Source: Gemmatimonadota bacterium (GTDB lineage Bacteria > Gemmatimonadota > Gemmatimonadetes > Longimicrobiales > Longimicrobiaceae). Taken from it: DNA of 64,000 bases. The stretch is from assembly GCA_028287185.1 (NCBI GenBank), contig JAQBQD010000153.1, positions 1-64,000 of the forward strand, given 5' to 3'. The stretch's first letter is position 1; each line of letters opens with the position of its first letter. Of this stretch, positions 54,871 to 59,573 are shown one piece after another. Position numbers and translations under genes: made by a program. Under the pieces are notes generated by a model that worked only from the letters and a program-made list of their open reading frames with translations, did no database searches and was not told the DNA's origin.

Positions 54871-57540
54871 ATGACCGACGCGAGCCGCGGCGCCGCCGCG
54901 ACCGCCGAGCGAGCCGACCCCGCCGAGCTGCGCGTGAGCCGGCTCCGTGCCGTGCGCGGCCCCAACTTCTGGCGCCTGGCGCCCGTCATCGCCTGCGACG
55001 TGCGCCTGGGCGCGCTGGAGGACGTCGACTCCGCCGAGATGCCGGGCTTCGTGGACCGGCTGCTGGCCGCGCTGCCGACGCTGCACGAGCACCCCTGCTC
55101 GCGGGGCGAGAGCGGTGGCTTCGTGGAGCGGCTGCGCGAGGGCACCCACCTGCCCCACATCCTGGAGCACGTCGCGCTGGAGCTGCAGACGCTGGCGGGC
55201 TCGGACGTGTCGTTCGGGCGCGTGGTGGAATCGGGCGACCCCGGCACGTGGTGGCTGATTGTGGCCTACGAGGAGGAGGACGTGGGGCTGCGCAGCGTGC
55301 GCGACGCGGTGCGGCTGGTGCAGGCGTGCATGGCGGACGAGCCGATCGACGCGGCCCCCGTCGTGGAGGAGCTTCGCGACCTGCGCGAGGGGGTGCGCCT
55401 GGGGCCGTCGACCGAGGCCATCGTCGAGGAGGCGCGGCGGCGCGGCATTCCCGTGCGCCGGCTGAACCGCTACTCGCTGGTGCAGCTTGGCCTGGGGCGC
55501 AACCTGCGCCGCATCCAGGCCGCCATGAGCGACGGCACCAGCGCGATCGCGGTGGAGATCGCGCAGGACAAGGACGACACACGGCGCGTGCTGCAGGCCG
55601 TCGGCCTTCCCGTGCCGCAGGGCGACGCCGTCACCGCCGTGGAGGACGCGCTGGAGGTGGCGGCCGAGATCGGCTGGCCCGTGCTGCTGAAGCCGCTGGA
55701 CGCCAGCCACGGACGCGGCATCTCGGGCCGCCTGGACGACGAGGCGGCCGTGCGCGCGGCGTGGGAGGCGTCCGCCGCCTACTCGCGCCGCGTGGTGGTG
55801 GAGCGGTTCGTAGAGGGCCGCGACCACCGCGTGCTGGTGGTGGGCGGGCGCGTGGTGGCGGTGGCCGAGCGCGTGCCGGCACACGTGGTGGGCGACGGGC
55901 ACGCCACCATCCGCGAGCTCGTCGGCCGCGCCAACCGCGACCCGCGCCGGGGCAAGGGCCACAGCAGGGTGATGACGCACCTGCCGGACGACGCTGGCAC
56001 CGAGGCGTTCCTGGCCCAGCAGGGGCTGTCGATGGACTCCGTTCCCGAGGCGGGACGGGCGGTGGAGCTGCGCGCCACGGCCAACCTGTCCACGGGCGGC
56101 ACCTCCATCGACCGCACGGACGACATCCACCCCGACAACGTGACGGCGTGCGAGATGGCGGCCGGCATCGTGGGGCTGGACATCGCCGGCATCGACGTGC
56201 TGACACCCGACGTGTCCGTGCCCTTCCGCGAGAACGGCGCGGTCATCATCGAGGTGAACGCCGCGCCGGGGCTGCGGATGCACACGCACCCGGCGGAGGG
56301 CGCCCCGCGCAACGTGGGCGCCCCCATCGTGGACATGCTGTATCCCCCGGGCTCGGAGCACACCATCCCCGTGATCGCCGTGACGGGGACGAACGGCAAG
56401 ACCACCACCACGCGCCTCATCGCCCACCTCTTCCGGCAGACGGGAAAGACGGTGGGATTCACCACCACCGACGGCGTGTACCTGGGGAGCCGCCTGGTGA
56501 TGGAGGGGGACATGACGGGCCCCTTCTCGGCGAACATCATCCTCAGCAACCCCACGGTGGACGTGGCGGTGCTGGAGACGGCGCGGGGCGGCATCCTGCG
56601 CGCGGGGCTGGGCTTCGACGAGGCGGACGTGGGCGTGGTGCTGAACGTGACGGCGGACCACCTGGGCCTGCGGGGCATCCACACGGTGGAGCAGCTCGCC
56701 GAGGTGAAAGGCGTGATCCCCGCCGTGGTGAAGCGCGACGGCCACGCCGTGCTGAACGCGGACGACCCCCTGGTGTACGCCATGCGGGAGCGGACCGGGG
56801 CGGACGTGGTGCTGTTCAGCACGGCCGGGCCCGGCGCCAACGAGAGCTTCGAGGAGCACCTGGCGCGCGGCGGCATCGGGGTGCGCATCGAAGACGGCAC
56901 CTACACCGTGCGGCGGGGGCGGCTGCGCATTCCCATCGTGGGCGTGCGCGAGGTGCCGCTCACCCTGGGCGGGGCGGCGCGCTTCCAGCACCAGAACATC
57001 CTGGCCGCCATCGCCACGGCCTACGTGCGGGGGGTGCGCTACGACACCATCCGCGCCGGGCTGCTGTCGTTCTTCCCCTCGCCCTCCATGACGCCGGGCC
57101 GGCTGAACCTGCTGCGGGTGGGCGGGGCGCGGGTGCTGGTGGACTACGCGCACAACGCCGCCGCGGTGGAAGGGCTGATGGAGCTGGCCCAGGCACTTCC
57201 GGCGAAGCGCCGCATCGGCGTGGTGGCGTCGCCCGGCGACCGGCGCGACGAGGACATCCGCGGGCTGGGCCGCCTGCTTTCCGGCCTGGACCGCGTGCTG
57301 GTGAAGGAGGACCTGGACCGCCGCGGACGGGCCGTGGGCGCCACCGCGTCGCTCCTCGTGGAGGGGCTGCGGGCGGGAGGGATGGACGAGGACCGCATCG
57401 AGACGACGGACGGCGAGCCCGCCGCGGTGGAGCGCCTGCTGGCGCTGCTGGGCGAGGGCGACCTGGGCGTGGTGCTCGCCGACAAGGTGCCCGCCGTGCT
57501 GGCCCAGATCCAGCCGCACACCGACAACCTGCCCACCTGA
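54871..57540 (+). CDS. cphA: Cyanophycin synthetase CphA
   Basis: An 889-residue enzyme that builds cyanophycin, the Asp-Arg storage polymer, using ATP for both bonds. Domains: N domain (about 15-165), ATP-grasp domain (about 205-470, with LLKPLDASHGRGIS), and Mur-ligase-like domain (about 490-885) with P-loop VTGTNGKTTTTR (about 505-514) and LDGVYLGS-like TDGVYLGSRLV. The N domain keeps HILEH (His96, Glu99, His100), an HxxEH pattern of inverted zinc peptidases; primer-generating hydrolysis has been reported for some CphA N domains. Arg-rich or Asp-rich pools feed it in the cytosol. It is followed at 13 bases by a truncated relative and then cphB. Confidence 0.97.
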   Translation: MTDASRGAAATAERADPAELRVSRLRAVRGPNFWRLAPVIACDVRLGALEDVDSAEMPGFVDRLLAALPTLHEHPCSRGESGGFVERLREGTHLPHILEHVALELQTLAGSDVSFGRVVESGDPGTWWLIVAYEEEDVGLRSVRDAVRLVQACMADEPIDAAPVVEELRDLREGVRLGPSTEAIVEEARRRGIPVRRLNRYSLVQLGLGRNLRRIQAAMSDGTSAIAVEIAQDKDDTRRVLQAVGLPVPQGDAVTAVEDALEVAAEIGWPVLLKPLDASHGRGISGRLDDEAAVRAAWEASAAYSRRVVVERFVEGRDHRVLVVGGRVVAVAERVPAHVVGDGHATIRELVGRANRDPRRGKGHSRVMTHLPDDAGTEAFLAQQGLSMDSVPEAGRAVELRATANLSTGGTSIDRTDDIHPDNVTACEMAAGIVGLDIAGIDVLTPDVSVPFRENGAVIIEVNAAPGLRMHTHPAEGAPRNVGAPIVDMLYPPGSEHTIPVIAVTGTNGKTTTTRLIAHLFRQTGKTVGFTTTDGVYLGSRLVMEGDMTGPFSANIILSNPTVDVAVLETARGGILRAGLGFDEADVGVVLNVTADHLGLRGIHTVEQLAEVKGVIPAVVKRDGHAVLNADDPLVYAMRERTGADVVLFSTAGPGANESFEEHLARGGIGVRIEDGTYTVRRGRLRIPIVGVREVPLTLGGAARFQHQNILAAIATAYVRGVRYDTIRAGLLSFFPSPSMTPGRLNLLRVGGARVLVDYAHNAAAVEGLMELAQALPAKRRIGVVASPGDRRDEDIRGLGRLLSGLDRVLVKEDLDRRGRAVGATASLLVEGLRAGGMDEDRIETTDGEPAAVERLLALLGEGDLGVVLADKVPAVLAQIQPHTDNLPT

Positions 57541-57553
57541 CACCCCCGGCCGG

Positions 57554-58624
57554 ATGAGCCATCCCGACCCGCACGACGAGATCCGCCTGGTGGCGCTCCG
57601 CAGCCTGCGGGGCGCCAACTTCTGGTCGCGGCGCCCCGTGACGCGGCTGGACCTGGCCGTGGGCGCCTTCGACGAGATCTCGTCGGCCGACGTGGAGGGC
57701 TTCACCGAGGCGCTGGTGGCGGCGTTCCCCGGGCTGTGGGAGCACCGCTGCTCCATCGGCGAGCGGGGCGGCTTCGTCACCCGCCTGCGCCGGGGCACGT
57801 ACGCGCCCCACATCATGGAGCACGTGGGGCTGGAGCTGCAGACGCTGGTGGGCCACGACGTCGGCTACGGCCGCGCCCGGGGCGGCGACCGGCCGGGCGA
57901 GTACACGGTGGTCTTCGAGCACGTGCACGCCGAGGTGGGGCTGCGGAGCGCCGCGCTGGCGCTGGAGCTGGTGCAGCGGGCCTTCGCCGGCGAGCTGGAG
58001 TCGGTGGACTACGCGGTGGCCGAGCTGGCGTCGCTGGCGGCGAGCCCCGACGTTCCGGCGCTGCGGCAGCGGGTGCTGTGCGGCGTCACCGGCGGCGGCG
58101 ACCGCGCGGCCGTGCGCGAGCAGATGGTGCGCCGCGGCGTGCCGGACGAGGAGCTGATCGTGGACGTGGCGCCGGCGTACCTGCTGAACGCGGGCCTGCC
58201 GTATTCGCGCAGCGAGATCGCCGTGATCCTGGACGCCGCGCCCACGGACGTGCCCGACCGCTACGCCGAGGAGGACCGCGCGCAGCAGCTCGTGTCCGTG
58301 GTCGCCGACGCGGTGGTGCGCGACGGGGTGGTCGTGTGCCCGGCCAAGGAATGGGAGGTGCAGGACCGCATCCGCGACGCCCGCTGCCGGGTGGCCGTCT
58401 TCTCCACGGCCGACGACGTGACCCGCCGCGACACGCGGGTGGCCCACGAGGTGGCGTTCGTGCGCGCCGGCCGCATCGTCTTCGAGTTCCAGGGCGCGGC
58501 GGAGGACGGCGGCGCACTGGACCCGGAGGCGCCCGCGGCCGCGCAGGTGGCCGCCGCCCTGGCCGTGCGCGCCCTGGACCGGCTCAGACCCCGCACCGAG
58601 GCGCCCGATGCCGCGATCGCCTGA
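57554..58624 (+). CDS. Stand-alone CphA N-domain protein with a Mur-like remnant
   Basis: A 356-residue protein. Residues 8-160 align by eye with the N domain of the adjacent CphA (LRSLRGANFWSRRPVTRLDL against LRAVRGPNFWRLAPVIACDV; both have LELQTL-VG/AG), including HIMEH (His86, Glu89, His90). The ATP-grasp domain is missing. The second half resembles only a middle piece of the CphA Mur domain: AGLPYSRSEIAVILDAAPTD against AGLGFDEADVGVVLNVTADH, and a VVADAVVRDGVVVCPAKEWE piece against the VIPAVVKRDGHAVLNADDPL piece. The Mur P-loop is absent, so synthesis is unlikely. A primer-making, scaffolding or regulatory role is possible. It overlaps cphB by 17 bases. Confidence 0.8.
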   Translation: MSHPDPHDEIRLVALRSLRGANFWSRRPVTRLDLAVGAFDEISSADVEGFTEALVAAFPGLWEHRCSIGERGGFVTRLRRGTYAPHIMEHVGLELQTLVGHDVGYGRARGGDRPGEYTVVFEHVHAEVGLRSAALALELVQRAFAGELESVDYAVAELASLAASPDVPALRQRVLCGVTGGGDRAAVREQMVRRGVPDEELIVDVAPAYLLNAGLPYSRSEIAVILDAAPTDVPDRYAEEDRAQQLVSVVADAVVRDGVVVCPAKEWEVQDRIRDARCRVAVFSTADDVTRRDTRVAHEVAFVRAGRIVFEFQGAAEDGGALDPEAPAAAQVAAALAVRALDRLRPRTEAPDAAIA

Positions 58625-59573
58625 CACCCCCTCGCCGCCCCCGCTGTCGCTGGACGACATCCCCAACCGGCGCCGAAGCGACCGCCACTCGGGCGCGCTG
58701 GTGCTCATCGGCGGGGCGTGCGACCCCACGGGCGCGGCGTTCGGCGCCTTCGTGGACCGCTGCGGCGGGCGCGACGGGGGCAAGATCGTGGGCCTCACCA
58801 CCGCCAGCGGCGAGCCGGCCGAGGCGGCGCGGCACTGGATGGACGCCTTCGCGCAGGCCGGCGCGCACAACGTGGAGATCCCCATCGTGGACACCCGCGA
58901 GCGCGCGCAGGACGCCCGCGTGGCGGCCATGGTACGCGGCGCGGACGGCATCTTCCTGGGCGGCGGCGACCAGGTGCACCTGGTCTCCACCCTCAGCGGC
59001 TCGCGCGTGGACCGCGCCATCCGCGAGCGCTACCTGGAGGGCGGCGTGGTCTGCGGCACCAGCGCGGGCGCGGCGGCGCTGACGGAGACCATCCTGGCCG
59101 GCGGCGAGCCCGACGAGTACGGGCAGATGCAGGAGCTTCACCTGGGCCCCGGCTTCGGGCTGCTGGGCTTCCGCGCCCTCATCGACACGCACTTCACCCA
59201 GCGGCGCCGGCTGCAGCGCCTGTTCATGGTGATCGCGCAGAGCCCGGAGATGATGGGCCTGGGCATCGACGAGGACACCGGGATCGTGGTGGAGGGGCAC
59301 GTGGGCCAGGTGGTGGGCAAGGGCTCCGTCACCTTCGTGGACGGCCGGGGCGTGCGCTTCGACAACACCGACGAGTGCCTGCACGGCAGTCCGCTCACCC
59401 TCAGCTACCTGCGCGTGGGCATCGTGGGCGCGGGCTACGCGTTCAACCTGCGCGAGCGCGAGCTGGACCTGCTGGTGCGCTCGCGAGAGAACCCCTGCGA
59501 AACCGAGGTCCTGCGTGGCGACGCCGTGCAGGCCGCGCGGCGGACGGGCGACGGCAAGCGCCAGGCGGGGTGA
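58608..59573 (+). CDS. cphB: Cyanophycinase CphB
   Basis: A 321-residue serine peptidase of family S51 that cuts cyanophycin into beta-Asp-Arg dipeptides. The nucleophile is Ser152 in VVCGTSAGAAAL; the Gly-rich start ALVLIGGACDPTG and GIFLGGGDQVHLV are typical, as is the ALIDTHFTQRRRLQRL segment with His. No signal peptide, so it acts on cytosolic granules. ATG 58608 lies inside the end of the preceding gene (17-base overlap), so translation is probably coupled. Together with cphA it lets the cell store and recover nitrogen. A dipeptidase for beta-Asp-Arg (IaaA or IadA type) is not in the window. Confidence 0.96.
   Translation: MPRSPDTPSPPPLSLDDIPNRRRSDRHSGALVLIGGACDPTGAAFGAFVDRCGGRDGGKIVGLTTASGEPAEAARHWMDAFAQAGAHNVEIPIVDTRERAQDARVAAMVRGADGIFLGGGDQVHLVSTLSGSRVDRAIRERYLEGGVVCGTSAGAAALTETILAGGEPDEYGQMQELHLGPGFGLLGFRALIDTHFTQRRRLQRLFMVIAQSPEMMGLGIDEDTGIVVEGHVGQVVGKGSVTFVDGRGVRFDNTDECLHGSPLTLSYLRVGIVGAGYAFNLRERELDLLVRSRENPCETEVLRGDAVQAARRTGDGKRQAG

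What the first reader, a model, noticed from the sequence alone, without database searches (positions are those of the whole stretch)
57554..58624. Stand-alone CphA N-domain protein wedged between cphA and cphB
Seen in sequence: the protein repeats the CphA N domain, including an HxxEH motif, but has no ATP-grasp domain and no Mur P-loop; its second half matches only a core piece of the CphA Mur domain. It lies 13 bases after cphA and overlaps cphB by 17 bases, so it is made together with them. Established: some CphA N domains cut cyanophycin to make primers. Inference: a separated primer-making, scaffold or granule-control subunit, or a tethered modulator of CphB. I know of no described function for such a protein.
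Basis: partly seen in the sequence, partly recalled or inferred. Interest (0 to 1): 0.78.

Follow-up and report, generated by a model that had tools for sequence, protein, structure and literature searches.

The report
Stand-alone cyanophycin-cutting subunit beside cphA
Between the gene that builds the nitrogen-storage polymer cyanophycin and the gene that digests it, this soil-bacterium lineage keeps a third gene that looks like the polymer builder's own small 'primer-making' blade, cut loose and mounted on a dead piece of the same enzyme, so that cutting could be controlled separately from building.

Summary
ORF 57554-58624 (356 aa, called CphX here) is intact, starts 13 bp after cphA and overlaps cphB by 17 bp. 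Its first half is a cyanophycin-synthetase N domain. Its second half is a degenerate CphA Mur core: the fold is kept, the P-loop TGTNGKTT has become TGGGDRAA, the catalytic DH is lost, and the G domain and Mur lid are absent. AlphaFold2 (pLDDT 94) superposes N plus Mur core on CphA1 with the G domain skipped (TM 0.80). Orthologues occur in 40 of the Gemmatimonadota genomes searched, in two families only, nearly always as cphA-cphX-cphB, and form one clade distinct from every CphA N domain. All 28 aligned members keep the full Cx19HxxEH zinc-protease site known from SuCphA1. They also keep polymer-contact residues that the partner CphA has changed. Best explanation: a dedicated trans-acting endo-cyanophycinase that makes primers for CphA, with the dead Mur core as structural mount. 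Activity is inferred, not shown. The partner CphA usually keeps its own site, so CphX is not simply a replacement; in genome G254 CphA has lost its site while CphX keeps it. Unexpectedly, large phages encode N-domain-only proteins with the same intact site. No earlier description was found in the papers held.

The parts
54871..57540 (+). cphA (type I cyanophycin synthetase, N-G-M, 889 aa); own N domain keeps Cx19HxxEH
   Evidence: TIGR02068 1106 bits; Pfam N, ATP-grasp, Mur_M, Mur_C; motif residues
57554..58624 (+). cphX: stand-alone N domain on a dead Mur core, 356 aa
57584..57985 (+). CphX N domain (residues 11-144)
   Evidence: PF18921 4.7e-34; Foldseek to CphA1 N domain
57749..57823 (+). 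zinc-protease site: C66 (57749-57751), H86 (57809-57811), E89 (57818-57820), H90 (57821-57823) = SuCphA1 C59, H79, E82, H83
   Evidence: 28/28 invariant
58061..58588 (+). CphX degenerate Mur core (residues 170-345)
   Evidence: hhalign to the CphA M core E 1.2e-5, best segment residues ~206-288; Foldseek of this half alone: CphA1 TMq 0.72, rmsd 3.2
58088..58105 (+). decayed P-loop TGGGDR in place of TGTNGK
   Evidence: R184 in 26/28, no Lys
58608..59573 (+). cphB (cyanophycinase, peptidase S51), overlaps cphX by 17 bp
   Evidence: TIGR02069 195.7 bits, PF03575

Best explanation
CphX is a catalytically competent, trans-acting endo-cyanophycinase. It is the CphA1 N-domain zinc-protease site, made as a separate protein and held on a catalytically dead remnant of the CphA Mur core that reproduces the N-M packing of CphA1. 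Its most likely job is to cut nascent cyanophycin into short oligomers that CphA uses as primers, setting the number of growing chains independently of polymerisation. SHOWN: gene order, predicted fold, invariant catalytic residues, loss of ligase residues, purifying selection, single origin. [quoted passage not shown] INFERRED: that CphX itself cuts, that it acts on its neighbour's product, and that priming rather than mobilisation is the main role.
For: All site residues H57, C59, S60, F67, R70, H79, E82, H83 of SuCphA1 are invariant in 28/28 CphX, E87 in 27/28. CphX keeps SuCphA1-like polymer contacts where the partner CphA differs: Y110 = Y in 28/28 (partner W in 19/21), G97 = G in 28/28 (partner mostly S), E607 of the M domain = D/E in 28/28 (partner A in 18/21). 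Ligase residues are lost: D585 and H586 equivalents, P-loop Lys. AF2 model pLDDT 94, pTM 0.87, matches CphA1 7lg5/7txv with TMq 0.80 across N + Mur core. In TeCphA1 the Mcore contacts the N domain (PMC9427784), and the free SuCphA1 N domain was insoluble until its M-facing loop was mutated (PMC9262961), which gives a reason to keep a Mur mount. CphX N is as conserved as, or more than, the partner's N domain (76% vs 72% mean identity without four outlier genomes; 70% vs 68% over all 19). cphA-cphX-cphB is the only shared neighbourhood while flanks vary. In G254 the partner CphA N site is destroyed (EHLC...TFVLER) but CphX is intact. All CphX form one clade, 100/99 support.
Against: No activity was measured. 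The partner CphA keeps Cx19HxxEH in 19 of the 20 full-length partners listed, so priming is not missing from most systems. Only one genome shows loss of the CphA site. Two genomes (G330, G341) have type I CphA without CphX, though each has a second, type II CphA cluster next to it. SuCphA1 E90 is not conserved in CphX (nor in the partner). cphX stays with cphB even where cphA is elsewhere (G311, G379), which fits a degradation role equally well. Two divergent members lack the end of the Mur core (307 and 289 aa).
Confidence: 0.55

Rival explanations
1. CphX is an endo-acting helper in cyanophycin breakdown: it opens internal bonds in granules so that the exo-acting CphB has more ends. Its main role is mobilisation, not priming.
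For: cphX overlaps or abuts cphB in most loci and stays with it when cphA is elsewhere (G311, G379). The catalytic site is the same. Large phages carry N-only versions, where destruction of a polymer is the easier reading.
Against: The known N-domain activity is slow, and granules resist it (PMC9262961). CphB is described there as fast and able to attack granules alone. Some CphX loci have no adjacent cphB (G356).
Confidence: 0.2
2. CphX is mainly a structural or regulatory subunit: its Mur core docks on CphA (in TeCphA1 the Mcore contacts three Gcore) to form a hetero-oligomer that changes assembly or polymer handling.
For: The Mur core fold is conserved without ligase residues. The Mcore contacts three Gcore in the TeCphA1 tetramer (PMC9427784). 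The genes are adjacent and mostly overlapping or a few bases apart.
Against: The catalytic site is invariant and the N half is more constrained than the C half in most comparisons. No complex prediction or binding data.
Confidence: 0.17
3. CphX is a decaying duplicate of cphA with no function.
For: The Mur half has lost its P-loop, DH and lid.
Against: 40 genomes, one clade separate from its neighbour, invariant site, dN/dS well below 1 in both halves.
Confidence: 0.02

Closest known systems
N domain of cyanophycin synthetase 1 (SuCphA1, PDB 7LG5/7TXV; cryptic endo-cyanophycinase, PMC9262961)
   Same: Same fold, complete Cx19HxxEH plus accessory and polymer-contact residues
   Different: Encoded as a separate protein rather than as part of the polymerase; mounted on a dead Mur core; no G domain
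CphA1 Mur ligase-like M domain (Mcore) / MurF, MurC middle domain
   Same: Fold of the C half (TMq 0.72 to CphA1, about 0.5 to MurF/MurC)
   Different: P-loop Lys and catalytic DH lost, no lid domain; not a ligase
N+Mur proteins without ATP-grasp in Legionella adelaidensis and Deinococcus deserti plasmids
   Same: N domain followed by a Mur domain, no G domain; the Legionella one also lies beside cyanophycinase
   Different: Full Mur ligase domains with P-loop (Legionella VTGTNGKTT, Deinococcus LTGTNGKST); larger (622 and 724 aa); N site lost in the Deinococcus one
N-domain-only proteins in large phages (found here)
   Same: Stand-alone PF18921 domain with intact Cx19HxxEH
   Different: No Mur core (182-199 aa, or other C-terminal parts); phage context, no cphA or cphB match in the fetched flanks
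CphB cyanophycinase (peptidase S51)
   Same: Cyanophycin hydrolase by inference, same gene cluster
   Different: Unrelated family and chemistry (serine, exo-acting)

Membership tests
Cyanophycin synthetase (CphA1, TIGR02068) | N + ATP-grasp G + Mur M domains; score above the curated cut-off | tested here: not met
   165 bits vs cut-off 850, no ATP-grasp
Cyanophycin synthetase (CphA1, TIGR02068) | Active M-domain ligase (P-loop GKT, D585/H586) | tested here: not met
   K->R in 26/28, D585 kept in 1/28, H586 in 0/28
CphA1-type N-domain endo-cyanophycinase (PF18921 with Cx19HxxEH) | PF18921 domain fold | tested here: met
   E 4.7e-34; Foldseek
CphA1-type N-domain endo-cyanophycinase (PF18921 with Cx19HxxEH) | Zn ligands C, H, H and general base E, plus H57, F67, R70, E87 | tested here: met
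   28/28 for all but E87 (27/28)
CphA1-type N-domain endo-cyanophycinase (PF18921 with Cx19HxxEH) | Cuts cyanophycin and relieves primer dependence in trans | not testable with these tools
   needs purified protein
Mur ligase family | Mur middle-domain fold | tested here: met
Mur ligase family | ATP-binding P-loop with Lys; lid (C-terminal) domain | tested here: not met
   no PF02875 or PF08245 hit
CphA2 | CphA-like N-G-M enzyme whose N domain lacks Cx19HxxEH (as described in PMC9262961) | tested here: not met
   motif present, no G domain
CphB (peptidase S51) | PF03575 / TIGR02069 | tested here: not met
   no hit for CphX

The most novel reading that the evidence does not exclude
A stored polymer is primed by a separately encoded endopeptidase subunit that can be regulated apart from the polymerase. 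The same stand-alone N-domain cutter is carried by large phages that act on host cyanophycin, so cyanophycin-cutting N domains form a free-standing hydrolase family that was hidden inside CphA.
Probability: 0.35. Interest if true: 0.8.

Novelty: new variant of a known kind. Interest (0 to 1): 0.63.

Why it matters
The discoverers of the CphA1 N-domain protease noted that, with building and cutting in one enzyme, their balance cannot be set by expression level (PMC9262961). CphX looks like a natural case where the cutter is also made separately. That makes primer control testable and offers a drop-in subunit for raising cyanophycin yield or setting chain length. The phage N-only proteins suggest that the same enzyme has been recruited by viruses.

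Tried and rejected
Complementation as a rule (CphX present because the partner CphA lost its site): rejected as general, since 19 of 20 full-length partners keep the motif; only G254 fits. Co-occurrence of CphX with N-dead 'type III' CphA (9 of 395 genomes, 7 with CphX): suggestive, but confounded because nearly all type I genomes carry CphX. Recent duplication of the neighbouring cphA: not supported by the tree. Whole-alignment hhalign of CphX vs CphA forced the C half onto the G domain; redone by domain. Two-domain homologues in plasmid and phage records: none. Coordinates of the models are not given out, so no own superposition or interface analysis was done. Named phages with the N-only protein: none in INPHARED.

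Full report
OBSERVATION. The frame at 57554-58624 is intact, lies 13 bp after cphA and overlaps cphB by 17 bp. Families: PF18921 (CphA N-terminal domain) at E 4.7e-34; no ATP-grasp, no Mur Pfam hit. TIGR02068 gives 165 bits in two stretches, far below its 850-bit cut-off. The neighbours are genuine: CphA 1106 bits, CphB 195.7 bits.

ANATOMY. AlphaFold2 on 28 aligned orthologues gives pLDDT 94, pTM 0.87. Against the PDB the best matches are CphA1 structures, E about 1e-15, query TM-score up to 0.80-0.81, with alignments of about 700 columns for 356 residues, i.e. the G domain is skipped and the N domain and Mur core keep roughly the same mutual placement. The C half alone, modelled separately (pLDDT 88), again finds CphA1 first (TMq 0.72, rmsd 3.2), then MurF and MurC. 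Profile comparison by domain agrees: C half vs the CphA M core E 1.2e-5 (best segment about residues 206-288), while the N, G and lid domains gave E 0.014 or worse.

ACTIVE SITE. Mapped on SuCphA1 (residue numbers and roles from PMC9262961), CphX has H57, C59, S60, F67, R70, H79, E82, H83 in 28 of 28 sequences and E87 in 27. Polymer contacts Y110 and G97 are kept in 28 of 28, and the M-domain contact E607 is Asp/Glu in 28 of 28. In the 21 type I CphA aligned, these are mostly Trp, Ser and Ala. The ligase half has lost its catalytic residues: the P-loop reads TGGGDR, Arg in place of Lys in 26 of 28, and the D585/H586 pair is gone. So the protein can be a protease, hardly a ligase.

DISTRIBUTION. 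Orthologues were found in 40 genomes, 16 of 21 searched in the window's own family and 24 of 179 in one other family of the phylum; none in the other families sampled among 395 genomes. Of the 28 aligned members, 22 have cphA directly upstream and cphB directly downstream on the same strand (cphA-cphX junctions from a 4 bp overlap to a 259 bp gap). Exceptions: two with cphX-cphB away from cphA, one with cphA 3.1 kb upstream, one at a contig edge, one without adjacent cphB, one with a divergent cphB upstream of cphA. No other gene is consistently shared by the neighbourhoods. Many Gemmatimonadota carry instead a different cluster, cphB-cphA-Mur-like, without CphX.

HISTORY. The N-domain tree puts all CphX in one clade (100/99), apart from the type I CphA next to it and apart from type II CphA and others (only 144 columns, so deeper order is unsure). 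CphX N domains are as conserved as or more conserved than the N domains of their partner CphA. dN/dS in eight pairs is 0.02-0.31 for the N half and 0.08-0.49 for the C half, one C-half pair being saturated.

MECHANISM. Published work shows that the N-domain site cuts cyanophycin into tetramers of dipeptides and that an isolated N domain makes a primer-dependent CphA primer-independent in trans; that free domain had to be solubilised by mutating the loop that faces the M domain (PMC9262961). In TeCphA1 the Mcore contacts the N domain of its own chain and three Gcore (PMC9427784). CphX has just the two pieces needed: the cutter and the surface it sits on. The inference is a trans-acting primer maker. 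That most partner CphA keep their own site means CphX adds to or overrides it. In G254 the CphA site is gone and CphX alone keeps it. The altered contact residues in type I CphA may mean that its own cutting is weak (inference).

RIVALS. Help to CphB in breakdown and a structural subunit are the serious alternatives; see fields. A pseudogene is excluded.

UNEXPECTED. A profile scan of IMG/VR found 20 loci (12 distinct sequences) with N-domain-bearing proteins that lack the G and Mur domains, in viral contigs up to 436 kb, all with intact Cx19HxxEH, scored by Pfam at E about 1e-44 (five tested). Context is truly phage: portal, baseplate wedge and head-tail adaptor proteins in L154, ssDNA-binding protein and ribonucleotide reductase in L140. 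Some begin with a short leader such as MKYLKSYKLFE shared with neighbouring phage genes, which resembles capsid-targeting leaders of internal head proteins (recalled, not tested). No named phage in the held set has it.

LITERATURE. Searches of the held papers turned up no description of a stand-alone N-domain protein or of cyanophycin genes in this phylum; not every listed paper was read, and subscription papers are not covered.

VERDICT. Real, conserved, new arrangement of known parts; function inferred with moderate confidence.

Noticed in passing
L138-L157 (IMG/VR; e.g. L140:4929-5477, L154:5001-5738): Large phages encode CphA N-domain proteins without G or Mur domains (182-310 aa, one 617 aa) with intact Cx19HxxEH, 12 distinct sequences; several share an N-terminal leader with neighbouring phage proteins. 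Possible injected or early cyanophycin-cutting enzyme.
   Followed up: partly
L106, L113-L119, L122; also G361:C441, G272:C48, G250:C32: A third CphA type in CphX-bearing families: G and M domains recognisable, N domain present but stripped of Cx19HxxEH. Found in genomes that mostly also carry type I CphA and CphX.
   Followed up: partly
L049/L120 (G254): Type I CphA with a destroyed N-domain site (EHLC...TFVLER) beside an intact CphX; related G144 keeps both.
   Followed up: yes
L058-L075 and L057 (own genome, contig C133): Second, different cyanophycin cluster: cphB-cphA(type II), in most loci followed by a Mur-ligase-like protein of about 550-620 aa whose N-terminal ~180 aa has no Pfam hit (one tested, L059). 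A similar order occurs on a Ruegeria plasmid (L093).
   Followed up: partly
L055:4007-5875 (Legionella adelaidensis plasmid), L054:4845-7019 (Deinococcus deserti plasmid 3): CphA relatives without the ATP-grasp domain but with both Mur ligase domains; the Legionella one sits next to cyanophycinase and isoaspartyl peptidase.
   Followed up: partly
L043:5734-6654, L049:2105-2986, L044:9882-10814: A second, divergent cyanophycinase (about 34-38% identical to the operon's cphB) near some cphA-cphX loci.
   Followed up: no
L101 (G398): cphA and cphX are broken into several frames in this genome, probably sequencing frameshifts.
   Followed up: no
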